From the NCBI RefSeq assembly GCF_014635665.1, contig NZ_BMDG01000015.1, positions 1-64,000 on the forward strand: a stretch of 64,000 nt of DNA. The letters are read 5' to 3'. A program made the position numbers and the translations under genes. The notes beneath the pieces are model-generated. The model was not told the origin of the DNA and made no database searches. It saw nothing but the letters and a program-made list of their open reading frames with translations. Source of the stretch: Isoptericola cucumis (GTDB taxonomy: Bacteria > Actinomycetota > Actinomycetes > Actinomycetales > Cellulomonadaceae). Below, piece after piece: positions 14,525 to 36,457 of the stretch. Positions within the stretch are counted from its first letter, which is position 1. Each line of letters starts with the position of its first letter.

Positions 14525-16129
14525 TCATGCGCCGTCCGGGCCGACGACGAGGAGCCGCCGGGCGCCGGCCTGCACCGTCCAGCCGGCCGTGACCCGCGCG
14601 GGCGTGCCGGCGACGAGCTCGTGCACCGTCCCGTCGGGGGCGATGACGGCGCTGCCGTTGGTGCTGCCGAGGTCGGTCACGCGCAGGCCGTCCGACTCGG
14701 GCAGCAGCTCCAGGTGCGTCTTGGAGACCGACCGCGTCGTGTCCTCGAGCCGCAGCGGCATCGCGGGCGCGCCGGCGTCCTGCTGCGGGTTGCGGCCCAC
14801 GAGCATGCGGCTCGCCACGGTGACGCGCCGCCCGGGGTCGACCTCGACCACGATCCGCGGCGGGGCGGAACCGTCGCCGGCGGCGCGGCGCGACGACACG
14901 CTGAACCGCGTGGCCTCGATGTCCTCGAAGTCCTCGGCCTCCGCCGGGCTCTCGGCGGCCGGGGCCGCGGCCGGCTGGACCGGGGCGACCGGCGGCACCG
15001 GGGCCTGCTGCACAGGAGCCGGCTGCACAGGTGCCGGCTGCACCGGGGCCGGCTGGACGGGCGGCTGCTGCGCGACGGGCACGGTCGGCGCACCCTGATC
15101 GACGGCGGGGTCGACGGTGGGGTCGACGGCCGGCGTCGGTTGCGCGCCCGGCGCGACGGCCGCGCGGTGGACGGTGTGGGACTCGACCGCGGCGTCGGCG
15201 GGCCGCGCGTCGGCCGGCGCGGCCCCGGTGCCCGGCGCGCCGGGCACCCCGGTGATGATGCCGCCGGTGCCGCGCTCCGCGGCCGGGAACGACCACGGGT
15301 CCTCGACGGCGGCCGACCCGGCCTCGGCGGGGGCCGCGGACGACCCCTCCTCCGGCGCCGCGGGACGCACGCCGCCCGACGCGGGGGCGAAGCTGCGCGG
15401 GGGCGCGCCGCGCACGTCGCGGACCACGCTGCGGGCGGCCTTGTCGTGCCAGCCCTGACGACGCCCCGAGGAGTCGAAGGTCGGCGACACCAGCACGAGC
15501 ACGGTGCCGATCAGGGGCAGCACCCCGCACAGCGCCAGCACGAGCCAGCGCAGCAGCCCGCGGCCCGCGCCGACAGGGGCGTCGGTGCCGAGCGCCGGGT
15601 CGGCGGCGTCGGTGCGGATGCCGAGCAGCCGGTTGCCGAGGGTGCGGCCGGTGAGCCCGTCCGCCAGGCCGAGCCCGACCCAGCCGAGCAGGCTCACGAG
15701 GCCCATCGCCCCGTAGACCGTGCCGAGCGCCGCGAACGCCTCGCTCGCGGCGGCCGACGCGCCCATGGCCGTCGACGCCTCGCCGACGGCCGCCATCGCG
15801 TCGAAGACGCCCGTGGTCAGCGCGACCACGAGGCCGACGGCGCCGGCCACCAGGGAGACGGCGAGCAGGTCGAGGACGTAGGCCCCCGCCCGCCGGCCGA
15901 CGCCGGCCAGGGGCGCCGTCGGGGGCGCGGCCGTGGCCGCGTCGCTCGCCGCGCGCAGCATCTGCGCCGACGCCCGCCGGGTGCTCTCGCGCATCTCCGG
16001 CTCGGTGGTCATCGCCAGCTGGGGGCTCAGGTCCCCCCGGCGCGAGGTCGCCACCGTGGGCGTGCCGCACACGGCGCAGAACGCCCCGGTCTGCTCGGAG
16101 GCGCCGCAGGCGCCGCAGGTCGTGGTCAT
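14525..16129 (-). CDS. Zinc-ribbon / RDD membrane / FHA protein
   Basis: A 534-residue protein starting at ATG 16129. The N-terminal ribbon has C-x2-C pairs (CGACG near 5 and CAVCG near 18). An RDD-type membrane domain follows (about 70-215) with a starting GRRAGAYVLDLL and an internal GRTLGNRLLGIR. A Pro/Gln/Ala-rich linker contains repeated QPAPV units, then a canonical C-terminal FHA domain (MLVGRN, SVSKTH, GSTNG). This architecture tethers an FHA reader to the membrane, plausibly next to EccC or the kinase. The QPAPV tract is a DNA-level tandem repeat (about 15,000-15,060) and could vary in length between strains. Confidence 0.8.
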   Translation of the reverse strand: MTTTCGACGASEQTGAFCAVCGTPTVATSRRGDLSPQLAMTTEPEMRESTRRASAQMLRAASDAATAAPPTAPLAGVGRRAGAYVLDLLAVSLVAGAVGLVVALTTGVFDAMAAVGEASTAMGASAAASEAFAALGTVYGAMGLVSLLGWVGLGLADGLTGRTLGNRLLGIRTDAADPALGTDAPVGAGRGLLRWLVLALCGVLPLIGTVLVLVSPTFDSSGRRQGWHDKAARSVVRDVRGAPPRSFAPASGGVRPAAPEEGSSAAPAEAGSAAVEDPWSFPAAERGTGGIITGVPGAPGTGAAPADARPADAAVESHTVHRAAVAPGAQPTPAVDPTVDPAVDQGAPTVPVAQQPPVQPAPVQPAPVQPAPVQQAPVPPVAPVQPAAAPAAESPAEAEDFEDIEATRFSVSSRRAAGDGSAPPRIVVEVDPGRRVTVASRMLVGRNPQQDAGAPAMPLRLEDTTRSVSKTHLELLPESDGLRVTDLGSTNGSAVIAPDGTVHELVAGTPARVTAGWTVQAGARRLLVVGPDGA

Positions 16130-18777: not shown

Positions 18778-20119
18778 TCGTCCTCCGCAGGGCGTTCGGC
18801 AGGTCAGCGAGCTCGCCGAGCGTCAGCACCTGCATGTCGGCGACGCGGCCGCGGCTCACCGAGCTGCCCGGCGAGCAGCGCATGGCCACGAGGCGCGCGT
18901 CGACGGGCAGCCGCACGGCCGCGGCACGCAGGTCGGTGGGCGACACCGTGCTGCCGACGGCGAGCACCACGACCGACGCGTCGGTGACGGTCGCCGAGGC
19001 GACCCGGGCGATCTCCGCCAGGCTCCGGCGCGCGGGCGCGAGCTCGAGGCGGGTCAGGTCGTCCAGCAGGCGGGTGCGGTGGTCGCCGCGCACCCGGCCC
19101 TGCGGCACGAGCACGGCAAGGCCGCCGTCCTCGCGGATGGCCTGGAGGCCGAGCGAGCCGCACGCGGAGACCGCGAGCTCGAACTCGTCGGGGTCGGCGT
19201 AGTCCTCCTCGCGCGTCGACAGGATGACGGCGAGGCGCGATCGACGCGTCTCCTCGAACTGGCGGACCATGAGCTGGCCGGTGCGGGCCGTGGACTTCCA
19301 GTGGATGTGCCGGCGGTCGTCGCCGGGCACGTAGTCGCGCAGCGCGTGGAACGACACGTCCGAGTCGGAGATGTCGGGGGTCACGCGGCCCTCGAGGTCG
19401 TGCAGCAGACCGGTGGACGAGCCCGACAGCGGCAGCGTGCGCGGGTGCACGAAGAGCTCCTCCGGCTCCGTCCACGTCAGCTCGCGCCGCAGCATGCCCA
19501 GCGGGTCGGCGCGCACCGAGCGCACCGGGCCGATGGGGATGACGGCGCGGCGGTGGGTCGGCACGGCGAAGAGCTCCTCGTGCTCGCCCTCCGGCCGCAG
19601 GCGCGGCAGCGGGAACGAGGCGATGCCCTGCCCCACCTGGAGCTCCATGACCGCCGGCAGCATGGTGCGGGACGAGTCGTTGCGCACCACGAGCCGGCCG
19701 ACGGCCCGGTCGCCGACGACGACCCGGCGCGACGCGACGTCGAGCACGACCGTGTACCGCAGCCGGCCCAGCACGAAGACCACCGCGCCCAGCAGGGCGA
19801 CCGTCGTCGTGACGGCGACGATCGTGGACTCCTGCCAGCGCAGGACGAGCCCGGCCCACCACGCCGCGGCGGCGAGCACCAGCACGGCCCAGCCGAACGG
19901 GGACACCACCCCCACCACCGGGGCGAGGCGCGCCCAGGCGTGCACGAGCCCGGCGCCGACGGCCTCGCCGGCCGCGCTCCTGGCGTCGGAGAGCACGCGG
20001 CGCAGCCGGCGCCGCGGCGTCGCGGCCGGTGCGGGCGCGGCGTCGTCCTGGGCCGCCTCGGGCGCGGCGGCCTCGGGTGCGGCGTCGGGCGCGTTCTCGC
20101 GCTCGGTGGTCGTGGTCAT
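18770..20119 (-). CDS. DUF58 family protein
   Basis: A 449-residue protein from ATG 20119. An acidic, Ala/Pro-rich N-terminus is followed by two membrane helices (about 70-115), a beta-rich domain, and the DUF58 core with its hallmark stretch about residues 265-290 (DYVPGDDRRHIHWKSTAR) leading into a VWA-like fold (RLAVILSTREED, then a later VVVLAVGS). The family is nearly always encoded with MoxR ATPases and transglutaminase-fold proteins, as here, and is thought to act with MoxR as a chaperone-like complex at the membrane. The start is the ATG followed by TTTTERENAPD. Confidence 0.88.
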   Translation of the reverse strand: MTTTTERENAPDAAPEAAAPEAAQDDAAPAPAATPRRRLRRVLSDARSAAGEAVGAGLVHAWARLAPVVGVVSPFGWAVLVLAAAAWWAGLVLRWQESTIVAVTTTVALLGAVVFVLGRLRYTVVLDVASRRVVVGDRAVGRLVVRNDSSRTMLPAVMELQVGQGIASFPLPRLRPEGEHEELFAVPTHRRAVIPIGPVRSVRADPLGMLRRELTWTEPEELFVHPRTLPLSGSSTGLLHDLEGRVTPDISDSDVSFHALRDYVPGDDRRHIHWKSTARTGQLMVRQFEETRRSRLAVILSTREEDYADPDEFELAVSACGSLGLQAIREDGGLAVLVPQGRVRGDHRTRLLDDLTRLELAPARRSLAEIARVASATVTDASVVVLAVGSTVSPTDLRAAAVRLPVDARLVAMRCSPGSSVSRGRVADMQVLTLGELADLPNALRRTND

Positions 20120-20150: not shown

Positions 20151-21125
20151 TCAGGCGGTCCGGCGTTCCTGCGGCGCGGGCACGTCGGTGAGCAGGCGCG
20201 AGATGGTCCCGTCGGCGGTGGCGCCCGCGAACTCGGCCTCGGCGTCGAGCACGAGGCGGTGGGCCCACACCGGCTGCACGAGGTCCTTGACGTCGTCCGG
20301 CAGGACGTAGTTGCGCCCGTGCGCGGCGGCCCAGACCTTCATGCAGCGCACGAGGGCGAGCGCGCCTCGCACGGACACCCCGACGTGCACGTCGGCGGCC
20401 TCGCGCGACTCCTGCGCCAGGCGGGAGACGTACTCGAGCACCGCCGGGTCGACGTGGGTGGAGGCCGCGAGGGCCGCCATGTCGACGACGGCCTGGCCGG
20501 TGATGACGGGCTGCAGCGCGGCGCTGCGGTCGCGCACGGCCGACCCGGCGAGGATCTCGACGGTCGAGGTGAGGTCCGGGTAGCCGATCGACGTCTTCAT
20601 GAGGAAGCGGTCGAGCTGGGCCTCGGGGAGCTTGTACGTGCCGGCCTGCTCGATCGGGTTCTGCGTGGCCACCACCATGAACGGCGCGCCCACCGGGTGC
20701 GGCACGCCGTCGACCGTGACGCGCGCCTCCTCCATGACCTCCAGGAGCGCGGACTGCGTCTTCGGCGAGGCGCGGTTGATCTCGTCCGCGAGCACGATGT
20801 TCGCGAAGACGGGGCCCTCGTGGAACTCGAACGTGCCGGTCTTCTGGTCGTAGATCGTGACGCCCGTGACGTCCGACGGCAGCAGGTCGGGCGTGAACTG
20901 GATGCGGTGGTTGGTGCCCTGCACGCTCGCGGCCATCGCACGGGCCAGCATCGTCTTGCCCGTGCCCGGGGCGTCCTCGAGCAGCAGGTGGCCCTCGGCC
21001 AGCATGCACGTCAGCGCGAGGCGGATCTGGTCGTCCTTGCCCAGGACGGCGCGCGCCACGTTGCCGACGATGCGGTCGAACGTCTGCGCAAACCAGGAGG
21101 CCTGCTCGGGGGTCATGGTGCTCAT
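20151..21125 (-). CDS. MoxR-family AAA+ ATPase
   Basis: A 324-residue ATPase. I use ATG 21125 (MSTMTPEQ); a second ATG nine bases later (21116) is possible. Walker A is EDAPGTGKTMLAR (about 48-60), Walker B is IVLADEINRA (about 110), and sensor 1 is VVATQNPIEQAGTYKLPEAQLDRF, the MoxR signature. A small helical lid domain completes the protein. MoxR proteins remodel or activate partner proteins, commonly together with VWA/DUF58 proteins; the DUF58 gene follows after 31 bp. It heads the run of regulatory genes downstream of the giant surface proteins. Confidence 0.9.
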   Translation of the reverse strand: MSTMTPEQASWFAQTFDRIVGNVARAVLGKDDQIRLALTCMLAEGHLLLEDAPGTGKTMLARAMAASVQGTNHRIQFTPDLLPSDVTGVTIYDQKTGTFEFHEGPVFANIVLADEINRASPKTQSALLEVMEEARVTVDGVPHPVGAPFMVVATQNPIEQAGTYKLPEAQLDRFLMKTSIGYPDLTSTVEILAGSAVRDRSAALQPVITGQAVVDMAALAASTHVDPAVLEYVSRLAQESREAADVHVGVSVRGALALVRCMKVWAAAHGRNYVLPDDVKDLVQPVWAHRLVLDAEAEFAGATADGTISRLLTDVPAPQERRTA

Positions 21126-21237
21126 CTCGTCGTTCCCGTCCGTTCGGTGTGCGCCGGTGGCGCGGTCTGCTCGTTGTCCAGGAGGCTCGCGTGGCTCGAT
21201 GTCCAAGAGCCCCGGGGCGGCCGTTTGTTACCCGCGA
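21126..21237 (-). promoter_or_regulatory. Gap between giant protein 1 and moxR
   Basis: A 112-bp gap. Just past the giant gene's stop a self-complementary GCCCCGGGGC (about 21,210-21,219) could form part of a terminator. I see no clear -10 box for moxR, so whether moxR is read through from the giant gene or has its own promoter cannot be decided. Confidence 0.3.
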
Positions 21238-24200
21238 CTACCACCAGTCGACCTTGTTGCTGGTGAGGTTGAGACCGTCACTGGTGGTGACCCAGACGGT
21301 GCCCGTGGTGCCCGTGTAGCACCACAGGTCGCGCGGGCCTGCGTTGCCGTTGCCGTCCGTGCTCGTGACCCCGGCCCGCTTCCAGTTGGTCCCGGCCGTG
21401 TTGAACTTCCGGCCGTCGGAGATGCAGTTGTACTTGAACTGCTGGTTCGGCTTCGCGTCGCGGATCGTGATCCGCAGGTACGCGCAGCCGTCGCTGAAGC
21501 AATCCCCGTACTGGGTCTCGCCGACCGCGGTCGAGCCGCGCTCGAGCGTCAGCGTCGGCTTCGGCTCCGCCTCGGTGCTCCCGCTCGCGGAGTCGCTGGA
21601 ACACCCGGCGCTGTTGCAGGCCTGCACGCTCACGGAGTACGACTTCGAGTACCCCCCGTTGACGTTGACCCGCCCGGTGCCGCTGCCCGAGCCCTTCTGG
21701 GACCCGGAGAGGGTCCACTTCACCGTCCCGGAGTCGCCGTTCCAGCTGCCCGGGCCGCTCACGGTGAAGTAGCCGTCCGTCGCCGACGTCTTCGTCCAGC
21801 GCACGCTCGGCGCGGACGGGACCCGGTAGGCCTTGACCCCGTTGGACGCCGCGCTCGCGCTCGACGCGCCCGCGGCGTTGTGGGCCGTGACCGTGAAGGT
21901 GTAGGTGTTCCCGTCCGGCAGCCCGGTGAACTGGGTGTTGGTACCGCTCACCGACTTCGTGGCGCCGTTGGACGCCCGCACCGTGTAGCTGGAGATCGGC
22001 GACCCGTTGGGGTCCGCGGCGCCCCAGGAGATCGACGGCACGCCCTTGTTGTCCGACGCCTTGACCCCTGTCGGGGTGCCCGGCTTGCCGTACGGCGTGA
22101 CGGCGTTCGACCTCGGGCTGGTCGCCCCCTTGCCGGCCTTGTTCTCCGCGGTGACGGTGAACGAGTAGCTCGACTTGGTGTCGAGGCCCTCGAAGTCGTA
22201 CGACGTGGCCGACGTCGTCGCGGACTCCACCTTCGAGTCGCCCTTGAACACGGCGACGTGGTAGTCCGAGACGGCGTCGCCGTTGTTCGCCGGCGCCTTC
22301 CACGTGACGTGCACCTGGCCGCCCAGCGCGGTGTCGACCCGCGACGCGCTCGGCGCGGCCGGGGCGTCCGGCGGCCCCGCGGGCACCATGGACGTCGACC
22401 ACGCGCCCCAGTCCGACGGGTCGGGCGCCTGGTTCACGGCCTGCACCCGGACCTTGTAGGCGGTGCCGTTGGTCAGGCCCTCCCACACGATCCGCTCGCC
22501 CGTGACGCCGACCTTCTGCGCCTCCCCGTTGGCGGGGGCGGGTGAGATCTCCAGGTTCACCGACTCGATCGGCGACCGGTCGGTGTACGACGCGTTCTTC
22601 CACGAGACCTCGAGCGACTCGTCACCGAACTCGAGCTGCGGCGCGGCGGGCGGGTCGGGCTTCTCGTCCGGGCGCGCCTCGGCGGAGGCGGGCGACGCGT
22701 CGGACGGCCCCACCGCGTTCTCGGCGACCACGGTGAACGTGTACGTGACGTTGTTGGTCAGCGGCTTCAGCGTGCACGTGGTGGCGGCGCAGCTGAACTC
22801 GTCGCCCTGGCTGGACGTCACCGTGTAGCCCGTGATCTCCGAGCCGTTGTTCTGCGGCGGGGTCCACGACAGCACGACCGTGCCGGAACGGACCTCCTCG
22901 ACCACCGGCGTCGACGGCGCCTCCGGGGCGCCGAGCACGTTGACGGTGATGCGGCCCTCGACCTGGCGGTCCGGGTCCTCGGTGGCGTCCTGCACCAGGT
23001 AGCGCACCACCATCGTGCCGACGAAGTCCTCCTTCGGGGAGACGACGACCTGGTCGCCGTCCGCCGTCGCGTCGCCGCGGCCCGTCTCCACGACGGGCTG
23101 CCCGACGAGCTCGAGCGGGCCCCGGTCGGCGAACGGGTTGGAGTCGTTCGCGAGCACCGGCACCGAGACGGCCTTGCCCTGGTGGGCGTCGTCCACGACG
23201 TCGTCCACGGCGCGCGCGAGCGGGCGCGTGGAGGCGACCACGTCGACGGCGAGCTCGCCGTCGACCGGCGGGTGCTCGTCGTCCGTCACCGTGTACGGCA
23301 CGGTGAAGGAGCTCCCCTTGGGGATCGAGGGCGTGGCCTCGAGCGTGACCCGCGTGCCGGACATGGTGGCCGACAGCCCCTCGGGCAGCCCGCCGAGCTC
23401 GAAGCGCAGGTCGTCGTTGTCGGGGTCCTTCGCGAACCGGCCGAGGTCGACGACGCTCTCCTCGCCCGCGGCGACCTTGCCCGACGGCGAGCCGGGCTCC
23501 GGCGGCAGGTTCTCCGGCGGCAGCACCGTGATCGGCATCGTCAGCACCGCCGTGCTGCCCTCCGGGTCGTCCGGGCCGTCGCCGTCGGTGACCTCGAACG
23601 TCACCGACGCGGGCCCGTCGTAGTCGTCGCGGGGGGTGTAGGACATGGTGGTCTGGCCGGTGACCTCGACCTCGCCCTCCAGGGCGGTCACCTGGTCGGC
23701 CGTGGTGAGGCGCGGGCTGCGGCCCTCGACCACCAGCACGTGCTCGGTGATGTCGATGTCGAGCTTCTCCCCCGCGGCGACCTCGAGCGGCGCCTGGCCG
23801 GGCTTGAGGATCGGCTGGGTGGACTCCATCCCCGGCACGACGACGAACGCCTTCGCGCTCTGGCCGTCCATGTCGGTGACCGAGTACGTGATGACCTGGC
23901 GGCGCTCGGTGAGCGTGACCTCGAGCTGGCCGTCCTCCGTGACCGCCGCGGTCGTCGCCCCGGTCTCGACGGTGAGGTCGTCGGCGGCGCCGTCCGGGTC
24001 CTCGTCGTTGTCGAGCACCGGCACGGTGACGCTGGTCTTGCCCAGCAGGTCGGCCACGGGCACGGAGTCGTCCCGGGCGACCGGCGGCAGCAGGGGCGCG
24101 TCGGCCGCGACGGTGACGCTCACGGACGCCGAGGCGCGCGCGGCGTACGTGTCCTCGATCGCGTAGAAGAACGTGTAGGTGCCCTCGTCGGACGGCGTCT

Positions 24201-27200
24201 GCACGACGACGCGGTCCTCGACGACCTCGGCGTCGAGGTCCTCGTCGCCCTCCAGCGCGCCGGCCACGAGGCCGACCTGGTCGCCGTCGGGGTCGGAGTC
24301 GTTCGCCAGCGCGGGCACGGCCACGCGCCGGTCCGGGCGCACCGTGACCTCGTCGTCGGCGGCGACCGGCGGCTGGTTGGTGGCGGGCGGCTGCGCGATG
24401 CCGACCCGGACCACGCCCGTGGCGACCTCGCCGCGCGCGTCCTGCACCGTGTAGCGGAAGGTGTCCGCCCCGCTCGCGTTCTCGCCGGCCGCGTAGTCGA
24501 CGTACCCGTCGACGACCTCGGCGCGGCCCTGCGTCGGCCCGGTGGCCAGGCCGGTGAGCTGGACCGAGTCGCCGTCGGGGTCGATGCCGTCCAGCGGCAC
24601 CGGGATGCGCACCGTGCCGCCGGACAGCACGCGCGCGTCGACGTCGCGGGGCACCGGGGCGGCGTTCTCGGACCCGCCGCGGATGTGGATCGTGACCTGG
24701 GCGGAGTCCTCCTGCCCGTTCGGGTCGCGCACCGTGTAGATCGCGTACGCGGTCCCGGCCTCCGAGCCGGCGCGGAAGCGCAGCCGGTCCTCGGAGACGA
24801 AGAGGTCGCCCTGGCCCTCGTCGACCGTCTGCTCGAGCTTCGGGTCGAGGGTCAGCTCCAGGCCGTCCGGGTGCGTGTCGTTCTTCAGCACCGGGATGTT
24901 CACGTAGTCACCCGCCCGCACCGTGACCTCGTCGGCGGCGGCATTGGGCGGCTGCAGGCGGTCGGGCGCGGGCACGGGCAGCACCCGCACCTCGCCGGTC
25001 GACGTCTCGGTGCCGTTCGACACGGTGTACGTGAGGGTGACGGGCTCGGACATGCGCTTCGTCTCGGTGACGCGCAGCATCTGGTGCGCCAGCACGGCGA
25101 CGCTGACGCCGGAGTCGTCGGGCACGTCGACCGACTGCACCACGAGCACGCCGCCCGCCGGGTCGGTGTCGTTGGCGAGCACGTCCACCAGCGTCGACCC
25201 GCCCGCGGGCAGCAGCGCCGTGTCGGAGACGACGACCGGCGCGCCCTGCGCACTCTCCGGGTCCTGCACGTCGACGCGGACCACACCGGTCGTGGCCTCG
25301 GGCCCGTCCGACACCTGGTAGAGCACGTCGTAGGACTTCGGCTCCTGGGCCAGGAAGGTGAACGTCCCCGCGTCGTAGTTGGGGGTGATCTCGGCGGGCG
25401 CGGCGTCGCTCACGCTGGTCAGCCGCAGCTCGTCGCCGTTGGGGTCGGAGTCGTTCTTCAGCGGCTCGATCGTCACCGGCTGCCCGGCCGTGACCACGAC
25501 GTGGTCGCCGACGGCCACGGGCGGCTCGTTGCCGTCGCCCAGGACGTCCACCCACAGCGTGCCCTCGACGACCTCGCCCTGGCCGTCGCCGACCGTGAGC
25601 GTGACCTTCTTGCGCCCGGTGGCGGAGCCTCCGTCGCGGAACTCGACCGTGCCGTCCGGGTAGGCGCGCACCTCGTCGCCCTGCACCGTCGCCGCGGCGG
25701 TCGCGAGGTAGACGTCGTCGCCGTCCGGGTCCTTGAAGAACGGGAGGACCTTGATCTGGGCGCTCTTGCCCTGCTGGACCCGCAGCACGGGCTCGCCCGA
25801 CTGCTCCGGGGCGTGGTTCTCGCTCCACGGCACCACGTCGACGTCCACGGTCGCCTGGTCGTGGCCGCCGCGCCCGTCGGTGACGTCGTAGGTGAAGGAG
25901 GCGTCGCCGCTCGCGTCCTCGGGCGTCACCGCCTGCAGCGCCTTGCCTCCCAGCACCCGCTGGACGGAGAACGCGTCCGGCTGGTCGCCGTCCAGGCTCG
26001 CGGTGATGACGTCGCCGTCCGGGTCGAGGTCGTTCGACAGGACGTCGAGGATGGTCGTGCGACCGGGCCGCACGCCGAAGCTGTCGTCCTGGGCCTTGGG
26101 CGGGTCCTGCTTCTCCCGGTCGACGACCGTCTGGTCGACGAGCTCCGGCTTCGCGTCCTCGGCGTCCTCGTCCTGGCCCTCGACCTGCTCCGGGAGCTTG
26201 ACGTCCCAGTCGTCGACCTTCTCGTACTCGTCGAGCGCCATCCACAGCGTGCCCGACGTGAGGTCGTTGAGGACCACGTTGTTGCGGTTCACGCGGTACT
26301 CGAGCTTCGTGCTCTGGTCGATGCCCTCGAGCACACGGTCGACGTCACGGTCCGTGCCCTCGCAGTCGCGCACGATCTGCCCGGTCGTCGACCAGGCGCC
26401 GTAGAGGCAGCCGCCGAGCTGCACCGGCGCGCCGGCGGACCCGGACGCCTTGCGCTGCGTCGCCGCGCCGCCGTCCAGCGGCTGCAGCACCAGGGCGCTC
26501 GACGTCGCGTAGGCGACGGCGTCCGACGACTCGCCCACCTGCTGCAGGCGGGCGCCCTGGGCGTCCGCGACGTCCACGGTCTCGCCACCGGGCAGCCGCA
26601 GCTCGCCGTCGGTGCGGTTCAGGATCACCGGGTCGTCGCCGACCGCGGTGAGGACGACGTCGTCGCCCCCGTCGAGCAGGCCCAGCTCCGTGACCTCGGG
26701 CTCCTGGCCCGGCTCGACCGTCCACAGCACGTCCCGGCTCGGCACCACCGCGAACGTGGTGCCCCCCTGCGACACCACGACCTGCGCCGCACCGTCCAGG
26801 TCCTGGGTCGGGTCCTCCTCCTCGGTATCGAGGCCGGGGAGCCGCTCGACCGTGGTGACCCACAGGGAGCCCGACTCGTCGTCCACCACGGCGACGCGGC
26901 CGCCGCCCATCGCGGTCTCGGCCCCCGCGGGGAGGACGGTGGCCGAGGAGAACTTGAGCCGGGCCACGTCGACGAGGTTCGCCGCGCTGCTCCCGCCGTC
27001 GTCCACCAGCACCTGGCTCGCCTGCTGCTCCACGTCGAAGTCGGCGCTGCCCGCCAGCAGCGTGCCGTCGAGCGCCTTCGCCTCCGTGCTGAACCGGCCC
27101 ACCAGCCCCGCCGACTGCTTCGTCACCCACACGCCGGAGTCGTTGAGGTCGACGTCCGCCGTGGCCTCGCCCTCGTACATCAGTGCCGTCACCACGACGC

Positions 27201-27276
27201 CGGCGGTCAGCGCGAGCACGACCGACGTCGAGACGGTCGCACGTCGGTCGGTGCGCAGGCGCGTGAACAGACCCAA
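21238..27276 (-). CDS. Giant surface protein 1: Ig-like (cadherin/VCBS type) and fibronectin III repeats
   Basis: About 2,012 residues from a proposed TTG at 27276. Residues 1-12 are basic, 14-32 a membrane anchor, and 45-390 a putative beta-propeller sensor (repeated short VVVSQGG/VLWTVE strands). About 11 Ig-like modules follow (about 395-1455), recognised by repeated N-D-x-D-P-x-G-D turns (LSNDLDPDGD, LKNDSDPNGD, LANDSDPDGD). Five fibronectin III modules (about 1457-1900; LSWTPP, VTWKAP, ISWGAA) lead to a 110-residue C-terminal cap with four Cys (GDCFSDGCAY, FKYNC, LWCYTG). The TTG is favoured because the paralogue has TTG at the same aligned codon and homology stops upstream of it; the frame itself is open to GTG 27384. 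Probably a wall-spanning adhesin/sensor connected to the MoxR-DUF58 machinery. Confidence 0.85.
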   Translation of the reverse strand: MGLFTRLRTDRRATVSTSVVLALTAGVVVTALMYEGEATADVDLNDSGVWVTKQSAGLVGRFSTEAKALDGTLLAGSADFDVEQQASQVLVDDGGSSAANLVDVARLKFSSATVLPAGAETAMGGGRVAVVDDESGSLWVTTVERLPGLDTEEEDPTQDLDGAAQVVVSQGGTTFAVVPSRDVLWTVEPGQEPEVTELGLLDGGDDVVLTAVGDDPVILNRTDGELRLPGGETVDVADAQGARLQQVGESSDAVAYATSSALVLQPLDGGAATQRKASGSAGAPVQLGGCLYGAWSTTGQIVRDCEGTDRDVDRVLEGIDQSTKLEYRVNRNNVVLNDLTSGTLWMALDEYEKVDDWDVKLPEQVEGQDEDAEDAKPELVDQTVVDREKQDPPKAQDDSFGVRPGRTTILDVLSNDLDPDGDVITASLDGDQPDAFSVQRVLGGKALQAVTPEDASGDASFTYDVTDGRGGHDQATVDVDVVPWSENHAPEQSGEPVLRVQQGKSAQIKVLPFFKDPDGDDVYLATAAATVQGDEVRAYPDGTVEFRDGGSATGRKKVTLTVGDGQGEVVEGTLWVDVLGDGNEPPVAVGDHVVVTAGQPVTIEPLKNDSDPNGDELRLTSVSDAAPAEITPNYDAGTFTFLAQEPKSYDVLYQVSDGPEATTGVVRVDVQDPESAQGAPVVVSDTALLPAGGSTLVDVLANDTDPAGGVLVVQSVDVPDDSGVSVAVLAHQMLRVTETKRMSEPVTLTYTVSNGTETSTGEVRVLPVPAPDRLQPPNAAADEVTVRAGDYVNIPVLKNDTHPDGLELTLDPKLEQTVDEGQGDLFVSEDRLRFRAGSEAGTAYAIYTVRDPNGQEDSAQVTIHIRGGSENAAPVPRDVDARVLSGGTVRIPVPLDGIDPDGDSVQLTGLATGPTQGRAEVVDGYVDYAAGENASGADTFRYTVQDARGEVATGVVRVGIAQPPATNQPPVAADDEVTVRPDRRVAVPALANDSDPDGDQVGLVAGALEGDEDLDAEVVEDRVVVQTPSDEGTYTFFYAIEDTYAARASASVSVTVAADAPLLPPVARDDSVPVADLLGKTSVTVPVLDNDEDPDGAADDLTVETGATTAAVTEDGQLEVTLTERRQVITYSVTDMDGQSAKAFVVVPGMESTQPILKPGQAPLEVAAGEKLDIDITEHVLVVEGRSPRLTTADQVTALEGEVEVTGQTTMSYTPRDDYDGPASVTFEVTDGDGPDDPEGSTAVLTMPITVLPPENLPPEPGSPSGKVAAGEESVVDLGRFAKDPDNDDLRFELGGLPEGLSATMSGTRVTLEATPSIPKGSSFTVPYTVTDDEHPPVDGELAVDVVASTRPLARAVDDVVDDAHQGKAVSVPVLANDSNPFADRGPLELVGQPVVETGRGDATADGDQVVVSPKEDFVGTMVVRYLVQDATEDPDRQVEGRITVNVLGAPEAPSTPVVEEVRSGTVVLSWTPPQNNGSEITGYTVTSSQGDEFSCAATTCTLKPLTNNVTYTFTVVAENAVGPSDASPASAEARPDEKPDPPAAPQLEFGDESLEVSWKNASYTDRSPIESVNLEISPAPANGEAQKVGVTGERIVWEGLTNGTAYKVRVQAVNQAPDPSDWGAWSTSMVPAGPPDAPAAPSASRVDTALGGQVHVTWKAPANNGDAVSDYHVAVFKGDSKVESATTSATSYDFEGLDTKSSYSFTVTAENKAGKGATSPRSNAVTPYGKPGTPTGVKASDNKGVPSISWGAADPNGSPISSYTVRASNGATKSVSGTNTQFTGLPDGNTYTFTVTAHNAAGASSASAASNGVKAYRVPSAPSVRWTKTSATDGYFTVSGPGSWNGDSGTVKWTLSGSQKGSGSGTGRVNVNGGYSKSYSVSVQACNSAGCSSDSASGSTEAEPKPTLTLERGSTAVGETQYGDCFSDGCAYLRITIRDAKPNQQFKYNCISDGRKFNTAGTNWKRAGVTSTDGNGNAGPRDLWCYTGTTGTVWVTTSDGLNLTSNKVDWW

Positions 27277-27366
27277 GATTCCCCCGGTGCCATGGTGGTG
27301 ACGACCTCCTGGGCGGGCGTGCGCACCCGTGGCCGTCGATGGCTGGAGAGGTCGGATCGCTCGCAC

Positions 27367-27433
27367 AGGATAGCCAGAATTCACCCGCTGGAGGCAACGA
27401 ATCTCACGTCAGCGCATGGGGAGAGGTCCCCAT
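27367..27433 (-). promoter_or_regulatory. Promoter of giant gene 1 with ATGGGGA-N4-TCCCCAT operator (copy 3)
   Basis: ATGGGGA-GAGG-TCCCCAT at 27416-27433, arms extended by G-C pairs to 27414-27435. Reading leftward, 43 nt (23 plus about two helical turns) separate it from TATCCT (27372-27367). Immediately upstream of that -10 box lies GGGTGAATTCTG (27386-27375), a 12-mer repeated with the same 2-nt spacing at the promoter of giant gene 2 (33555-33544, then TAGGGT). The transcript leader would be about 85 nt. Confidence 0.55.
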
Positions 27434-27473
27434 GCCGCCCCCGTGTCCCTTCCGGCGGGCGGGCGCGTGGCCG

Positions 27474-30400
27474 TCACCAGGTCGTTCGCCGGTACTCCTT
27501 CCCGTCGATCACGACCGCCACCTGGCGGCCGCCGTAGCCGAAGTAGCACTTGAGCTGCTTGCTCCCCTGCTCCGAGAGCGTGACGTCGTAGGCGTGCCCG
27601 GGCGCCACGATGTTGCTCCACCCCTGCGCGTCGTCGCCGTAGCACTGCACGCTGTGCGTGCCGGGCTTGAAGTTCTTGGTGTTGACGACGAAGTACGCGC
27701 AGTCCGAGCTGGAGCACCCCTTCTGCCCCTGGGCCGAGGCGCCGCGGGTGACCCAGGCGTCCGCCACGAACGCCTTGTCGCTGGCGCACTTCGACGCCGT
27801 CTGCCCCGCCGAGTCCCGGACCTTCACGCAGACCTGCTTCGACTGCCCGGGGTCGGCCGAGACCGTCTTCTTGCCGCTGCCCGCGGAGCTGGACACCGCG
27901 CCCGTGACGCTGACGTCGATCGACCGGCCGTTGGTGCTGGTCGACCAGCTGAACGTCACCTGGTTGCTGCCGCCGGAGGCGGACACGGACGGCGTCGGCA
28001 CCGGCCCGTACGGCTTCACGGCGCCGGAGTACGACGTCCAGCCCGAGCAGCCGGCGGCGTTGCACGCCTGCACCCGGAACCGGTAGCTGGTGCCGTTCTT
28101 GAGGCCGCCGTAGCTCGTGGACGTGCCGGTCACCTTCTTGCTGCCGCCCTTGTCGGTCGCGACGGTGTACGTCACGGCGTTGCCGTTGTCGTTCGCCGCG
28201 CCCCACGAGACGTTCGCCTGCCCGCTCGTGCCGTCCACGGACGCCTTCGGCGTGCCGGGCGCGCCGGGCCTGCCGAACGGCTTCACCGCGTTGGACCGCG
28301 CGCTCGCCGGGCCCTTGCCCGCCTTGTTCTGGCCCGCGACGGCGAACGAGTAGCTCGCCTTCTTGTCGAGCCCCTCCAGGTCGAGCGAGGTGCCCGTGGC
28401 GGCCCGCGTGTCCACCTTGGACCCGTTCTTGAACACGTCCACGAAGTACTTCTTGACGGTGTCGCCGTTGTCGACCGGCGCGCGCCACGTGACGTGCACC
28501 TGCCCGCCCAGCGCGGTGTCGACGCGCGACGCGCTCGGCGCCGCGGGGGCGTCCGGCTTGCCGGCCGGGACCTCGCTGGCCGACCAGGCTCCCCACTCGG
28601 ACGGGTCGGGCGCCTGGTTGACCGCCTGCAGCCGCACCTTGTAGGCGGTGCCGTTGGTCAGCCCCTCCCAGACCACGCGGTTGGAGGTCACGCCGACCTT
28701 CTGCGTCTCGCCGCTGCCGGGCGCGGGCGAGATCTCCAGGTTCGACGACGTGATCGCCGAGCGGTCGGAGTACGACGCGTTCTTCCACGTCACCGTCAGC
28801 TTCCCGTCCCCGAACTCGAGCTGCGGCGCCGCGGGCGGGTCGGGCTTCTCGTCGGGCCGGGCCTCGGCCGAGGGCGGCGACTCCTTCGAGGGGCCGACGT
28901 CGTTGTTCGCCTTCACCGTGAACGTGTAGGTGACGTTGTTGGTCAGCCCGTCGAGCGTGCAGGTGGTGGTCTCGCACTCGAACGTGTCGCCGCGGCTCGA
29001 GGTCACCGTGTACCCGGTGATGTCCGCGCCGTTGTTCGCCGGCGGCGTCCACGACAGCACGACGGTCTTCGAGCGGACCTCCTCGACCTGCGGGGTCGTC
29101 GGCGCGTCGGGCGCGCCGAGCACGTTGACGGTGGCCCGGCCCTCGACCTGGCGGTCGGGGTCCTTCGTCGCGTCCTGCACGGTGTAGCGCACCACCATCG
29201 TGCCGATGAAGTCCTTGTCCGGCGTCACGACGACATCCTCGCCGTCCACGGTCGCGGTCCCGCGGCCGGTCTCGAGGATCGCGTCGCCCACGATCTCCAG
29301 CGGCCCCCGGTCCTCGAACGGGTTGGAGTCGTTCGCCAGCACGGGCACGGAGACCGCCTCGCCCTGGTGGGCGTCGTCCACCGTGTCGTCGACCGCCCGC
29401 GCGAGCGGGCGCGTGGAGGCCACGACCTCGACCGACAGCTTGCCGTCGACCGGCGCGTGCTCGTCGTCCGTGACCGTGTACGGCACGGTCAGCACGGTCC
29501 CCTTGGCGACGTCCGGCGACGCCTCCAGCGTCACGCGGGACCCGGACACCGTGCCCCCGACGCCCTCCGGCAGCGCGCCGAGCTCGAAGCGCAGCGGGTC
29601 GTCGTCCGGGTCCTTCGCGAAGCGCCCGAGGTCGACCACGTTCTCCTCGCCCGCGGCGACCTCGCCCGACGGCGAGCCCGGCTCGGGCGGCAGGTTGTCC
29701 GGGGGCAGCACCGTGACGGGCAGGGTGAGCACCGCGGTGTGGCCGTCGGGGTCGTCGGGGCTCTCGCCGTCGGTGACCTCGAACGTCACCGACGCCGGGC
29801 CCACGTGGTCGGGGTTCGGCGTGTACGTCATGGTGGTCTGCCCGGTCACCTCGACCCGGCCGTCCACGGCGGTGACCTGGTCGGTCGTGGTGAACCGCGG
29901 CGAGCGGCCCTCGACGACCAGCACGTGCTCGGCGATGTCGATGTCGAGCGGCTCGCCGGCCGGCACCTCGAGCGGGGCCTGACCCGGCTTGAGGATCGGC
30001 TCGATCGAGGTGAGGCCAGGGACGACGACGAACGCCTTGGCCTGCTGCCCGTCCATGTCGGTCACCGTGTAGGTGATGACCTGGCGCTGCTCGGTGAGCG
30101 TCACGTCCAGGGCGCCCTCGGGAGTCACGGTCGCCGTCGAGGCGTCCGTGTCCACGGCGAGGTCGTCGGCCGCACCGTCCGGGTCCTCGTCGTTGTCGAG
30201 CACCGGCACGGTGACGCTGGTCTTGCCCATGAGGTCCGCGACGGGGACGGAGTCGTCCCGCGCGACCGGCGGCAGCAGGGGGGCGTCCGCGGCGACCGTG
30301 ACGCTCACCGACGCGTTCCCGCGTGCGCCGTACGTGTCCTCGATCGCGTAGAAGAACGTGGAGGTGCCCTCCTCGGAGGGCGTCTGCACGACGATGCGGT

Positions 30401-33400
30401 CCTCGGCCACCTTCGCGTCCAGGTCGTCGTCGCCCTCCAGCGCACCGGCGACCAGCCCGACCTGGTCGCCGTCCGGGTCGGAGTCGTTCTCCAGCGCGGG
30501 GATCGCGACCCGTCGGTCGGGGCGCACGGTGATCTCGTCGTCGGCACCCACGGGCGGCTGATTCGTGGCGGGCGGCTGCGCGATGCCGACCCGGACCATG
30601 CCGGTGGCCACCTCGCCGCGCGCGTCCTGGACGGTGTAGCGGAAGCTGTCGCCACCGCTCGCGTTCTCGCTCGCCTCGTAGTCGATGAAGCCGTCCGCCA
30701 CCTCGGCGCGCCCCTGCGTGGGTCCGGTGGCCAGGCCCGTCAGCTGGACCGAGTCACCGTCCGGGTCGATGCCGTCCAGCGGCACGGGGACGCGCACCGT
30801 GCCGCCGGACAGCACCCGGGCGTCGACGTCGCGGGGCACGGGCGCCGCGTTCTCCTCGCCCCCGCGGATGTGGATCGTCACCTGGGCGGAGTCCTCCTGC
30901 CCGTTCGGGTCGCGCACGGAGTAGATGGCGTACGCGGTGCCCGGCTCGCTCCCGGCGCGGAAGCGCAGCCGGTCCTCGGAGACGAAGAGGTCACCCTGCG
31001 CCTGGTCGGCCGACTGCTCCAGCTCGGGGTCCAGGGTGAGCTCGAGCCCGTCCGGGTGCGTGTCGTTGCCCAGCACCGGGATGTTCACGTAGTCGCCCGC
31101 CCGGACCGTCACCTCGTCGGCCGTGGCGTTCGGCGGCTGCAGGCGGTCGGGGGCCGGCACCGGCAGCACCCGCACCTCGCCGGTCGACGTCTCGCTCCCG
31201 TTCGAGACCGTGTACTCCAGCACGACGGGCTCGGACAGCCGGCGCGTCTCGCTGATCCGCAGCGTCTGGTGACCGAGCACGGCGACGTTCAGGCCGGAGT
31301 CCTCCGGCACACGCACCGACTGCACCACGAGCACGCCGCCCGCCGGGTCGGTGTCGTTGGCGAGCACGTCCACCAGCGTCGACCCGCCCGCCGGCAGCAT
31401 CGCCGTGTCGGAGACCACGACCGGCGCGCCCTGCGCACTCTCCGGGTCCTGCACGTCGACGCGGACCACACCGGTCGTGGCCTCGGGCCCGTCCGACACC
31501 TGGTAGAGCACGTCGTAGGACTTCGCCTCGTGCGCGAGGAACGTGAACGTCCCCGCGTCGTAGTTGGGCGTGATCTCCGCCGGCGCCGCCTCGCTGACCG
31601 ACGCGAGCCGCAGCTCGTCGCCGTTCGGGTCCGTGTCGTTCTTCAGCGGCTCGATCGTGATCGGCTCGCCCGCGGTCGCCTCCACGTGGTCGCCGACCGC
31701 GACCGGCGGCTCGTTGCCGTCGCCCAGGACGTCCACCCACAGCGTGCCCTCGACGACCTCGCCCTGCCCGTCGCCCACGGTCAGCGTCACCTTCTTGCGC
31801 CCGGTCGCCGACCCGTTGTCGCGGAACTCGACCGTGCCGTCCGGGTACGACCGCACCTCGTCGCCCTGCACCGTCGCCGCGGCCGTCGCGAGGTAGACGT
31901 CGTCGCCGTCCGGGTCCTTGAAGTACGGCAGGACCTTGATGCGCGAGGTCTTGCCCTGCTCCACCCGCAGCACCGGCTCGCCCGACTGCTCCGGGGCGGC
32001 GTTCTCCTCGGGCGGCACGACCCGCAGCTTCACCTCGGCCTGGTCGGTGCCGCCGCGCCCGTCGCTCACCTGGTACCGGAACGTCACGTCCCCGGTGGCG
32101 TCGGGCGGCGCGACCGCCTGCAGGGCCTTGCCGCCCAGCACCTGCTGCACCGAGACCGGCTCCGGCTGGTCGCCCTCGACGCTCGCGGTGATGACGTCGC
32201 CGTCCGGGTCGAGGTCGTTCGACAGCACGTCCAGCACCGTGGCCCGGCCGGGGCGGACCCCGAAGCTGTCGTCCTTCGCCTGCGGCGGGTCCTGCTTCTC
32301 CCGGTCGACGACCGTCTGGTCGACGAGCTCCGGCTTCGCGTCCTCCGCGTCCTCGTCCTGACCCTCCGTCTGCTCGGGCAGCTGCACGTCCCAGTCGTCG
32401 ACCTTCTCGAACTCGTCCAGGGCCATCCACAGCGTGCCCGACGTGAGGTCGTTGAGGACGACGTTGTCGCGGTTGGTGCGGTACTCGAGCTCGGTGCTCG
32501 GGTCGATCCCCTGGAGGGTCTCGTCCACGTCCCTGTCGGTGCCGTCGCAGTCGCGCACGATCTGGCCCGAGCTCGACCACGCCCCGTACAGGCAGCCCCC
32601 GAGCTGCACCGGCGCCGCCGGCGAGCCGGACGCCTGGCGCTGCGTCGCCGCGCCGCCGTCCAGCGGCTGCAGCACCAGCGCGCTCGCCGTCGCGTACGCG
32701 ACGGCGTCCGACGACTCGCCCACCTGCTGCAGCTGTGCCTCCTGGGCCTCGGCGACGTCCACGACGTCCCCGCTCGGCAGCCGCAGCTCGCCGTCCGTGC
32801 GGTCGAGGATCACCGGCTCGTCGCCGACGGCGGTGAGGACCACGTCGTCGGCCTCGTCGAGCAGGCCGAGGTCCGTCGTCGTCGGCTCCTCGCCCGGCTC
32901 GACGGTCCACAGCACGTCCCGGCCCGGCACCACCGCGAACGTGGTGCCCCCTTGCGACACCACGACCTGCGCCGCACCGTCCAGCTCGACGGTCGGGTCC
33001 TCCTCCTCGAGGTCGAGCGTCGCCATGGTGTCGACGGGCGCCACCCACAGCGCGCCCGCCTCGTCGTCGACCACCGCGACCTGGCCGCCGCCCAAGGCCG
33101 ACTCCGCACCCGAGGGCAGCTGCGTGGTGGAGCCGAACTTCAGGCGCGCGACGTCGACCACGTTGGCCGCGGCGCTCCCGGCGTCGTCCACCAGCACCTG
33201 GCTCGCCTGCTGGTCCACGTCGAAGTCGGCGCTCCCGGCCAGCAGCGTGCCGTCGAGCGCCTTGGCCTCGGTGTTGAAGCGGCCGACGAGGCCGGCGGAC
33301 TGCTTGGTGACCCACACGCCCGAGTCGTCGAGGTCGACGTCCGCCGTGGCCTCGCCGTCGTACAGCAGTGCCGTGACGGCGACCCCCGCGGACAGGGCGA

Positions 33401-33461
33401 GGACGACCGACGTCGAGACGGTCGCGCGTCGGTCGGTGCGCAGGCGCGTGAACAAGCCCAA
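27474..33461 (-). CDS. Giant surface protein 2: tandem paralogue of giant protein 1
   Basis: About 1,995 residues from a proposed TTG at 33461 (GGAGGA just upstream; ATG 33503 and TTG 33455 are alternatives). The layout matches giant protein 1: anchor at 14-32 (TDRRATVSTSVVLALSAG is nearly identical), putative propeller, about 11 Ig-like modules, five fibronectin III modules. Identity looks very high over the first ~1,700 residues, then drops: the fourth and fifth fibronectin modules and the Cys-containing cap (QKGCSSSDCAYF, SVQCYG, LKCYFG) are clearly different. This implies an old tandem duplication with the stalk kept alike by selection or gene conversion and the tip free to change binding. 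It has its own promoter, lacking the palindrome. Confidence 0.85.
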   Translation of the reverse strand: MGLFTRLRTDRRATVSTSVVLALSAGVAVTALLYDGEATADVDLDDSGVWVTKQSAGLVGRFNTEAKALDGTLLAGSADFDVDQQASQVLVDDAGSAAANVVDVARLKFGSTTQLPSGAESALGGGQVAVVDDEAGALWVAPVDTMATLDLEEEDPTVELDGAAQVVVSQGGTTFAVVPGRDVLWTVEPGEEPTTTDLGLLDEADDVVLTAVGDEPVILDRTDGELRLPSGDVVDVAEAQEAQLQQVGESSDAVAYATASALVLQPLDGGAATQRQASGSPAAPVQLGGCLYGAWSSSGQIVRDCDGTDRDVDETLQGIDPSTELEYRTNRDNVVLNDLTSGTLWMALDEFEKVDDWDVQLPEQTEGQDEDAEDAKPELVDQTVVDREKQDPPQAKDDSFGVRPGRATVLDVLSNDLDPDGDVITASVEGDQPEPVSVQQVLGGKALQAVAPPDATGDVTFRYQVSDGRGGTDQAEVKLRVVPPEENAAPEQSGEPVLRVEQGKTSRIKVLPYFKDPDGDDVYLATAAATVQGDEVRSYPDGTVEFRDNGSATGRKKVTLTVGDGQGEVVEGTLWVDVLGDGNEPPVAVGDHVEATAGEPITIEPLKNDTDPNGDELRLASVSEAAPAEITPNYDAGTFTFLAHEAKSYDVLYQVSDGPEATTGVVRVDVQDPESAQGAPVVVSDTAMLPAGGSTLVDVLANDTDPAGGVLVVQSVRVPEDSGLNVAVLGHQTLRISETRRLSEPVVLEYTVSNGSETSTGEVRVLPVPAPDRLQPPNATADEVTVRAGDYVNIPVLGNDTHPDGLELTLDPELEQSADQAQGDLFVSEDRLRFRAGSEPGTAYAIYSVRDPNGQEDSAQVTIHIRGGEENAAPVPRDVDARVLSGGTVRVPVPLDGIDPDGDSVQLTGLATGPTQGRAEVADGFIDYEASENASGGDSFRYTVQDARGEVATGMVRVGIAQPPATNQPPVGADDEITVRPDRRVAIPALENDSDPDGDQVGLVAGALEGDDDLDAKVAEDRIVVQTPSEEGTSTFFYAIEDTYGARGNASVSVTVAADAPLLPPVARDDSVPVADLMGKTSVTVPVLDNDEDPDGAADDLAVDTDASTATVTPEGALDVTLTEQRQVITYTVTDMDGQQAKAFVVVPGLTSIEPILKPGQAPLEVPAGEPLDIDIAEHVLVVEGRSPRFTTTDQVTAVDGRVEVTGQTTMTYTPNPDHVGPASVTFEVTDGESPDDPDGHTAVLTLPVTVLPPDNLPPEPGSPSGEVAAGEENVVDLGRFAKDPDDDPLRFELGALPEGVGGTVSGSRVTLEASPDVAKGTVLTVPYTVTDDEHAPVDGKLSVEVVASTRPLARAVDDTVDDAHQGEAVSVPVLANDSNPFEDRGPLEIVGDAILETGRGTATVDGEDVVVTPDKDFIGTMVVRYTVQDATKDPDRQVEGRATVNVLGAPDAPTTPQVEEVRSKTVVLSWTPPANNGADITGYTVTSSRGDTFECETTTCTLDGLTNNVTYTFTVKANNDVGPSKESPPSAEARPDEKPDPPAAPQLEFGDGKLTVTWKNASYSDRSAITSSNLEISPAPGSGETQKVGVTSNRVVWEGLTNGTAYKVRLQAVNQAPDPSEWGAWSASEVPAGKPDAPAAPSASRVDTALGGQVHVTWRAPVDNGDTVKKYFVDVFKNGSKVDTRAATGTSLDLEGLDKKASYSFAVAGQNKAGKGPASARSNAVKPFGRPGAPGTPKASVDGTSGQANVSWGAANDNGNAVTYTVATDKGGSKKVTGTSTSYGGLKNGTSYRFRVQACNAAGCSGWTSYSGAVKPYGPVPTPSVSASGGSNQVTFSWSTSTNGRSIDVSVTGAVSSSAGSGKKTVSADPGQSKQVCVKVRDSAGQTASKCASDKAFVADAWVTRGASAQGQKGCSSSDCAYFVVNTKNFKPGTHSVQCYGDDAQGWSNIVAPGHAYDVTLSEQGSKQLKCYFGYGGRQVAVVIDGKEYRRTTW

Positions 33462-33535
33462 GAATCCTCCGTCGTCTGTGGCGTCGCGGCGTTGCGGCGG
33501 CATGGGCCGGCACGAACCGGGCACGATCGGCGCCC

Positions 33536-36274: not shown

Positions 36275-36441
36275 GCTTCGCATCGTGGCACCCGGACCAC
36301 CTCCCCGCGCGGGGGCGCCCTTCCGCCCGACCTGTCGCACCCCTCCCGCCTCACCAGCGGCGCCCTTCCTGCCCGGCCCGTCGCCCGCCCGGCCGACGTC
36401 GTGACGACGCTCCCGACCACGCCGACCACCCGTCCGGCGCG

Positions 36442-36457
36442 TAGGTTGCGGAGGGTG
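36442..36457 (+). promoter_or_regulatory. Leaderless promoter of the UbiA gene
   Basis: TAGGTT at 36442-36447 lies exactly 7 nt before the GTG at 36455, so transcription should begin at or next to the start codon. A GGAGG touches the GTG directly and is too close to act as a Shine-Dalgarno, which supports leaderless initiation and this choice of start. Confidence 0.5.

What the first reader, a model, noticed from the sequence alone, without database searches (positions are those of the whole stretch)
21238..33461. Tandem 6-kb giant genes with a conserved stalk and diverged tip
The two proteins look nearly identical for about 1,700 residues, then diverge in the last two fibronectin modules and the cap. 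This pattern fits stalk homogenisation by gene conversion and tip diversification for different ligands. Twelve kilobases of DNA for two surface proteins in one locus is a large investment.
Basis: seen in the sequence. Interest (0 to 1): 0.6.

Follow-up and report, generated by a model that had tools for sequence, protein, structure and literature searches.

The report
Giant surface proteins with exchangeable tips
An actinobacterium carries two neighbouring 6-kb genes for long, probably surface-anchored proteins whose shafts stay alike, partly through copying between the genes, while the far ends are swapped for different ones; the evolutionary pattern is known from leptospiral LigA/LigB and appears here in a gene cluster best known from bifidobacteria.

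Summary
The two genes are real: T1 (21238-27384, minus, 2048 aa) and T2 (27474-33524, minus, 2016 aa), each with about ten bacterial Ig/cadherin domains, four FN3 domains and a cap. They are not nearly identical: the shaft is 84% identical in protein; from T1 residue ~1700 (last two FN3 domains, cap) identity falls to 54 and then 30%. They head a cluster MoxR-DUF58-transglutaminase-FHA-PP2C-FHA-Ser/Thr kinase, like the PFNA operon of Bifidobacterium. In 89 relatives from 54 genomes shaft divergence tracks the N-domain (rho 0.75) but hardly the cap (0.15). Same-genome copies share exact DNA runs of up to 533 nt, well above matched between-genome controls (p=7e-8). In three genome pairs the tip alone is replaced while DNA on both sides stays alike. 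AU tests reject a common history of shaft and tip. Exposure, ligands and function are untested. A new variant of a known kind.

The parts
27474..33524 (-). T2, upstream tandem copy: giant Ig/FN3 protein, 2016 aa (GTG start; exact start uncertain)
   Evidence: open frame, translation, 10 Big_9 and 4 fn3 stretches
21238..27384 (-). T1, downstream tandem copy: giant Ig/FN3 protein, 2048 aa (GTG start; exact start uncertain)
   Evidence: open frame, translation, Pfam
27169..27234 (-). T1 hydrophobic segment near residues 51-72 (presumed membrane anchor; the like in T2 near residues 36-57)
   Evidence: seen in the translation; no membrane predictor was run
22945..26034 (-). T1 Ig/cadherin-like shaft, residues ~451-1480
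   Evidence: Big_9/Cadherin matches; 84% identical to T2
22345..22932 (-). T1 FN3 domains 1-2, residues ~1485-1680, still shaft-like (80-81% identical to T2)
21241..22287 (-). T1 tip: FN3 3-4 plus cap, residues ~1700-2048; cap in the class with L003b, L004b, L007b, L012a, L021a
   Evidence: identity step, cap class, model mean pLDDT 83 for the last 205 aa
27477..28472 (-). T2 tip: FN3 3-4 plus cap, residues ~1685-2016; cap in the class with L003a, L004a, L005a, L007a, L030a
   Evidence: model mean pLDDT 94 for the last 205 aa
25231..25341 (-). T1 side of the 109-nt exact match to T2 (T1 residues ~682-718), candidate gene-conversion tract
31416..31526 (-). T2 side of the same match (T2 residues ~667-703; coordinates approximate)
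20151..21206 (-). MoxR-family AAA ATPase
   Evidence: AAA_3 E 1.8e-62
18770..20119 (-). DUF58 protein
   Evidence: E 2.8e-12
16126..18777 (-). transglutaminase-like protein (TgpA type)
   Evidence: Transglut_core E 1.3e-19; TgpA_N below its cut-off
14525..16129 (-). RDD protein with FHA domain
   Evidence: RDD E 3.2e-12, FHA E 5.9e-4, at its cut-off
13675..14511 (-). PP2C-type protein phosphatase
   Evidence: E 8.9e-12
11879..13696 (-). FHA-domain protein
   Evidence: E 5.7e-5
10252..11874 (-). Ser/Thr protein kinase
   Evidence: Pkinase E 2.4e-36

Best explanation
T1 and T2 are paralogous giant envelope proteins: N-terminal anchor, a long Ig/FN3 shaft and a distal tip of FN3 domains and a cap. 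Shown by sequence: shaft and tip have different histories; same-genome copies share DNA patches in the shaft as expected from gene conversion; in three genome pairs the tip is replaced as a block ending at about the stop codon while both flanks stay homologous; 23 of 24 tandem pairs carry different tip classes. Inferred: the shaft lifts the tip through the cell wall and is held by structural constraint and by its partners in the cluster (MoxR, DUF58, transglutaminase, phosphatase, kinase); homology in the shaft and in the downstream DNA serves as landing site for tip exchange, and unequal crossing-over between tandem shafts makes and loses copies; the tip is the recognition part (adhesion, recognition of neighbours or substrates, or escape from phages or predators), so that two copies give the cell two specificities.
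For: Identity step at T1 ~1700 in protein and DNA. Between-genome Spearman of shaft identity with N-domain 0.75, with cap 0.15 (89 proteins, 54 genomes). AU tests: tip rejects T1+T2 (1.1e-5) and L004a+L007a (2.1e-8); shaft rejects L012a+L021a (2.9e-24), L003a+L004a (7.2e-10) and T2+L007a (2.6e-7), pairs that the tip tree joins. Tip replacement with matching flanks: L053/L066 (two Arthrobacter) 95.4% identical over 15.6 kb, about 0.5 kb at 34-64%, then 95.7% over 9.5 kb; L119/L122 and L141/L142 likewise, with flanks at 72-98% per 100 bases and tips at 41-68%. Gene conversion: the 18 same-genome pairs with shafts 76-91% alike have longest exact runs of 44-533 nt against median 48 and 95th percentile 104 in 120 of 195 between-genome pairs of that range (p=7e-8); in G029 the tandem pair L146/L150 is 97-100% identical in DNA across FN3 1-2 and 49-73% just after. 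Tip models are beta-strand domains; four Cys are invariant in each of two cap alignments (23 and 15 sequences).
Against: No ligand, localisation or expression evidence. Different caps in tandem copies are not more frequent than random draws from the cap pool (1 of 24 alike, 2.8 expected, p=0.21; 0 of 18, p=0.15, and 0 of 12, p=0.052). For T1/T2 the conversion signal is marginal after correction (0.086). In G005/G010 shafts follow position, not genome. No further match to either tip in this genome at E <= 1, so donors are unseen. Silent sites are near saturation between most genomes, so ages are unknown. G119 and G131 are near copies, so two of the 18 conversion pairs are not independent. The four Cys are not in all caps of the wider set.
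Confidence: 0.72

Rival explanations
1. Plain old duplication: shafts kept alike by purifying selection only, tips drifting or under positive selection, no recombination.
For: Shaft dN/dS 0.26 for T1/T2; Ig-shaft identities among the 14 proteins lie at 66-94% whether or not they share a genome; shafts of G005 and G010 group by position.
Against: Blocks of unlike tip between much more similar flanks; exact DNA runs between same-genome copies beyond matched controls; AU conflicts between shaft and tip; dN/dS below 1 in the tips of the ten same-cap pairs examined.
Confidence: 0.15
2. The giant protein is a structural or assembly factor of the envelope served by MoxR, DUF58 and transglutaminase; tips vary only because phages or predators use the exposed end, and bind nothing for the cell.
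For: MoxR, DUF58 and TgpA follow the giant gene in 44 of 60 loci with at least 1.5 kb beyond it; no ligand is known.
Against: A defined fold with four conserved Cys in the two main cap classes suggests a maintained scaffold; 12 of those 60 loci have a giant gene without these neighbours; 23 of 24 tandem pairs hold two tip classes, though this equals chance.
Confidence: 0.25
3. Assembly artefact or collapsed/expanded repeat.
For: The assembly is a draft of 29 contigs.
Against: The copies differ by about 21% in DNA; two and three tandem copies recur in other genomes, one of them a single contig.
Confidence: 0.02

Closest known systems
LigA/LigB of Leptospira
   Same: Long Ig-domain surface proteins, tandem genes on some chromosomes, alike in the N-terminal part through an inferred gene conversion and unique in the distal domains, with recombination between lig genes of related strains (PMC7821625, passages read).
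   Different: Big_2 domains, spirochete; LigA/LigB are nearly identical over the shared part, here the shafts are 84% alike; the cluster of MoxR, DUF58, transglutaminase, phosphatase and kinase is found here (that Lig genes lack it is recalled, not tested).
PFNA operon of Bifidobacterium (pkb2, fn3, aaa-atp, duf58, tgm; in some prpC, fha)
   Same: One-direction cluster with a giant FN3 protein (1994 aa in B. longum), MoxR, DUF58, transglutaminase, Ser/Thr kinase, in some phosphatase and FHA (PMC8430577 section 5); [quoted passage not shown]
   Different: Kinase last, not first; two fn3 genes with four FN3 domains each. Bifidobacterial papers call the cluster unique to bifidobacteria, found no orthologues in other organisms and no recombination; a review notes that the mycobacterial moxR operon resembles it (PMC12067865 passages). 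Homology of the FN3 proteins themselves was not tested here.
Giant Ig-like adhesins such as Salmonella SiiE
   Same: Long Ig-like protein; SiiE 2yn3 is the top Foldseek match of the T2 tip.
   Different: The match is generic Ig/FN3 (TM-score 0.33 to the query); for the T1 tip the top match is human NCAM2. Secretion and function differ or are unknown (recalled).

Membership tests
PFNA cluster | Five core genes fn3, aaa-atp (MoxR), duf58, tgm and a Ser/Thr kinase in one direction | tested here: met
   Pfam matches, all on the minus strand, 10252-33524
PFNA cluster | Fixed order with pkb2 first | tested here: not met
   Kinase lies last, at 10252-11874; order rule from PMC8430577 section 5
PFNA cluster | FN3 protein with two FN3 domains | tested here: not met
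   Four fn3 stretches in each copy
PFNA cluster | Variable C-terminal region of the FN3 protein | tested here: met
PFNA cluster | Sequence homology of the giant protein to bifidobacterial FN3 | not tested
   No named Bifidobacterium sequence was retrieved
PFNA cluster | Co-transcription as an operon | not testable with these tools
   No RNA data
LigA/LigB pattern (works like) | Tandem paralogues with alike shaft and unlike distal domains | tested here: met
LigA/LigB pattern (works like) | Gene conversion in the shared part | tested here: met
   Family level; marginal for T1/T2 itself
Leptospiral Lig family (membership) | Big_2 Ig domains | tested here: not met
   Big_9, Cadherin_4, Cadherin_5 and fn3 matches; no Big_2 among families with E <= 0.001
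Adhesin | Binds a ligand through the tip | not testable with these tools
   No assay; fold comparison is generic

The most novel reading that the evidence does not exclude
PFNA-like clusters of Micrococcales and relatives are a widespread tip-exchange recognition system: paralogous shafts kept recombinable by gene conversion act as landing pads, so that tip cassettes are swapped between copies and between species, giving a cell up to four specificities that are read out by the linked kinase/phosphatase and MoxR machinery. The cytokine binding reported for bifidobacterial FN3 would then be one instance of an older, host-independent recognition function.
Probability: 0.3. Interest if true: 0.75.

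Novelty: new variant of a known kind. Interest (0 to 1): 0.52.

Why it matters
It gives direct cases of tip replacement on an otherwise similar giant protein, in one pair on a shaft that is 98% identical in protein (L053/L066), and a controlled signal of gene conversion between copies. The giant gene is in 105 of 121 sampled genomes of this family, and MoxR, DUF58 and transglutaminase follow it in 44 of 60 named loci with room to tell. A PFNA-like arrangement with a variable FN3 tip is thus common outside bifidobacteria, which bears on the claim that the bifidobacterial cluster evolved for talk with animal immune systems.

Tried and rejected
Positive selection in tips: T1/T2 dN/dS in the last 205 residues is 1.34 and L119/L122 1.06, but these compare different cap types at high divergence and are not informative; in the ten same-cap pairs of that call (16 pairs in all) it is 0 to 0.61 in the last 205 residues. 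L146/L150, the one tandem pair in one cap class, has 0.66.

Recent tip transfer between species by silent sites: of 32 same-cap pairs from different genomes the third-position identity of the tip differs from that of the shaft by -3 to +15 points. L133/L134 has a more alike tip (96 against 81%), but the likeness runs on into the next gene, so it is not tip-specific. L012/L021 has tip 85% against shaft 69% in protein with silent sites diverged in both: an old shared tip type, not a recent transfer.

Silent tip cassettes: none in the own genome at E <= 1, and in the locus scan only cut ends of neighbouring copies, the broken L026 and the contig-edge gene L023 lay outside the C-terminal position. 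'Tandem partners always differ in cap class' weakened in the larger set (0 of 18 pairs, 1 of 24) and is no more than chance there (p=0.21).

N-terminal domain: no convincing relative among solved structures (best E 0.027). Caps: no Pfam model above cut-off for T1 or T2. Fold matches of both tips are generic Ig/FN3 (Z at most 8.3).

Dropped rows: L026a, L047a, L050b and genes cut at the 3' contig end. Of the copies listed I fetched 69; copies with low scores, cut by contig ends or already held were left out. 120 of 195 control pairs were used. Most groups were chosen after seeing the identity tables or trees; T1+T2 was given by the finding.

Papers: PMC8430577 (section 5 and a term search), PMC6803598, PMC12607495, PMC12067865 and PMC7821625 (passages only); others only as search listings with the start of the abstract. 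In those seven searches no listing pointed to a description of tip exchange or of tandem fn3 copies in such clusters of Micrococcales; most subscription journals are not held.
Full report
What is there. The window lies in a 4.46-Mb genome of 29 contigs; the best-matching named relatives are Isoptericola. Two genes on the minus strand, T2 (27474-33524) then T1 (21238-27384), encode proteins of 2016 and 2048 aa. Each has ten Big_9 stretches, cadherin-like matches and four FN3 stretches, a hydrophobic segment near the N-terminus (seen in the sequence; no predictor run), and a C-terminal cap without a Pfam model above cut-off. The whole T1 protein finds only these two places in the genome. Downstream on the same strand follow MoxR, DUF58, a transglutaminase-like protein, RDD-FHA, PP2C, FHA and a Ser/Thr kinase.

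How alike they are. Along the alignment aa identity is 76-91% per 100 columns up to column 1700 and then 55, 40, 31 and 23%; the step begins at T1 residue ~1700, between FN3 2 and 3. 'Nearly identical' is too strong: the shaft is 84% identical, dN 0.10, dS 0.40 (a simple method in very GC-rich DNA, so a rough figure), and four-fold sites in the shaft are 50-78% identical per window. Other genomes' shafts are almost as close (T1 to L003a 82%).

Relatives. 74 named loci and whole-genome searches show the gene in 15 of 18 genomes of the genus (this one included) and 105 of 121 sampled genomes of the family, with one to four matches in those that have it. In the genus, tandem copies occur in 4 of 18 (two in G000, G005, G010; three in G004), and G003 has two copies on different contigs. 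Of 60 named loci with at least 1.5 kb beyond the gene, 44 have MoxR, DUF58 and TgpA after it, 4 have two of the three, and 12 none; some of the latter are second copies, e.g. L011 and L072, whose genomes also hold L009 and L022.

Shaft and tip have different histories. In 89 full proteins from 54 genomes, shaft identity between genomes correlates with N-domain identity (Spearman 0.75) but barely with cap identity (0.15). Pairs with shafts of 85% or more can have unlike caps, and pairs with shafts of 51-70% can share caps at 60-85%. In the genus tree T1 and T2 are sisters in the shaft, but in the tip tree T2 goes with L007a and T1 with L108a, L110a and L111a. AU tests reject T1+T2 for the tip (1.1e-5) and L004a+L007a (2.1e-8), and reject for the shaft the pairs that the tip tree joins, L012a+L021a, L003a+L004a and T2+L007a (apart from T1+T2, groups were chosen after seeing identity tables or trees).

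Tip replacement between close relatives. Two Arthrobacter contigs (L053, strain Leaf234; L066, A. bussei KR32) are 95.4% identical over 15.6 kb up to the tip, 34-64% over the last ~550 bases of the gene, and 95.7% over the next 9.5 kb. L119/L122 (from ~700 bases before the stop) and L141/L142 (from ~300) show the same pattern: upstream windows 72-96%, tip 41-68%, and 88-98% from about 100 bases after the stop.

Gene conversion in the shaft. For 45 same-genome pairs (24 tandem, 21 not) I measured the longest exact DNA match. In the 18 pairs with shafts 76-91% identical the runs are 44-533 nt, against a median of 48 and a 95th percentile of 104 in 120 of 195 between-genome pairs of that range (Mann-Whitney p=7e-8; pairs are not all independent, and the longest control run, 438 nt, comes from the near-copies G119/G131). 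The longest runs of the top 18 of the 45 pairs, the ones printed with positions, all end by residue 1653, before the tip. In G029 the tandem pair L146/L150 is 97-100% identical in DNA across FN3 1-2 and 49-73% just after. For T1/T2 the longest run is 109 nt at T1 residues 682-718, just above the control's 95th percentile; a permutation test on variable third positions gives 0.0013, or 0.086 after correction for 66 pairs. So conversion acts on the family and probably here, in patches. That the rest of the likeness is purifying selection is inferred from the low dN/dS and from equally alike shafts elsewhere.

Against my reading. In G005/G010 (L004, L007) the shafts group by position in the array, so conversion has not levelled them. 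Different cap classes in tandem copies (23 of 24 pairs; classes depend on a clustering threshold) are no more frequent than random draws (p=0.21), although caps of tandem partners tend to be less alike than those of equally related copies elsewhere (mean percentile 0.22 in 18 pairs; 0.32 in 24). No cassette store was found.

The tip. The last 205 residues model as beta-strand domains (mean pLDDT 94 for T2, 83 for T1). The two main cap classes align as profiles (hhalign probability 100%, E 1.4e-40, the alignment including the FN3 part), with four invariant Cys in each alignment, though not in every cap of the wider set. Structure matches are generic Ig/FN3. At E <= 1e-6 a profile of these caps finds 3 of 79 class-wide genomes including this one.

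Comparison. The pattern is that of leptospiral LigA/LigB, set in a cluster like the bifidobacterial PFNA operon, of which two stated features are not met (kinase first; two FN3 domains). Papers on that operon call it unique to bifidobacteria, found no orthologues elsewhere and no recombination, while a review likens the mycobacterial moxR operon to it. The clusters seen here in other actinobacteria suggest that such an arrangement is older and not tied to animal hosts; this holds if the proteins are homologous, which was not tested against a Bifidobacterium sequence. Function, ligands and exposure of the tip remain inference.

Noticed in passing
window 4708-9180 (-) and 4268-4573 (-): A 1490-aa protein with N-terminal FHA and FtsK/SpoIIIE domains (EssC-like, label recalled) and a small frame with a WXG100 match below the Pfam cut-off, beside the cluster; a 51% identical FtsK-FHA frame lies next to the cluster in L188, and weak matches (25-34%) near the gene in L034, L038 and L056. 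The only WXG100 match over cut-off in the genome is on another contig.
   Followed up: partly
L188, about 8490-8723 (+), between the giant gene and MoxR: In a genome of another family a second cap-like stretch lies in a different frame around and after the stop of the giant gene: either a left-over tip or a frameshift in a two-cap protein. Not mended.
   Followed up: partly
L189:3709-5106 (+): A 465-aa protein about 13-14 kb from the giant gene in the same genome ends in the same kind of cap; no Pfam match at E <= 0.001.
   Followed up: no
L190:6812-9535 (-): A shorter frame (908 aa) with FN3 domains and a cap but no Big_9 match, followed by MoxR, DUF58 and transglutaminase.
   Followed up: no
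L046, L039, L019: Contigs filed under Vibrio cholerae, Planococcus and Sphaerisporangium carry this actinobacterial locus and look misassigned or contaminated.
   Followed up: no
window 33616-37774 (-): Frames with FAD-binding, ICMT methyltransferase and type III polyketide synthase matches directly upstream of T2; the first two also lie upstream in L003, L007, L021 and L114.
   Followed up: no
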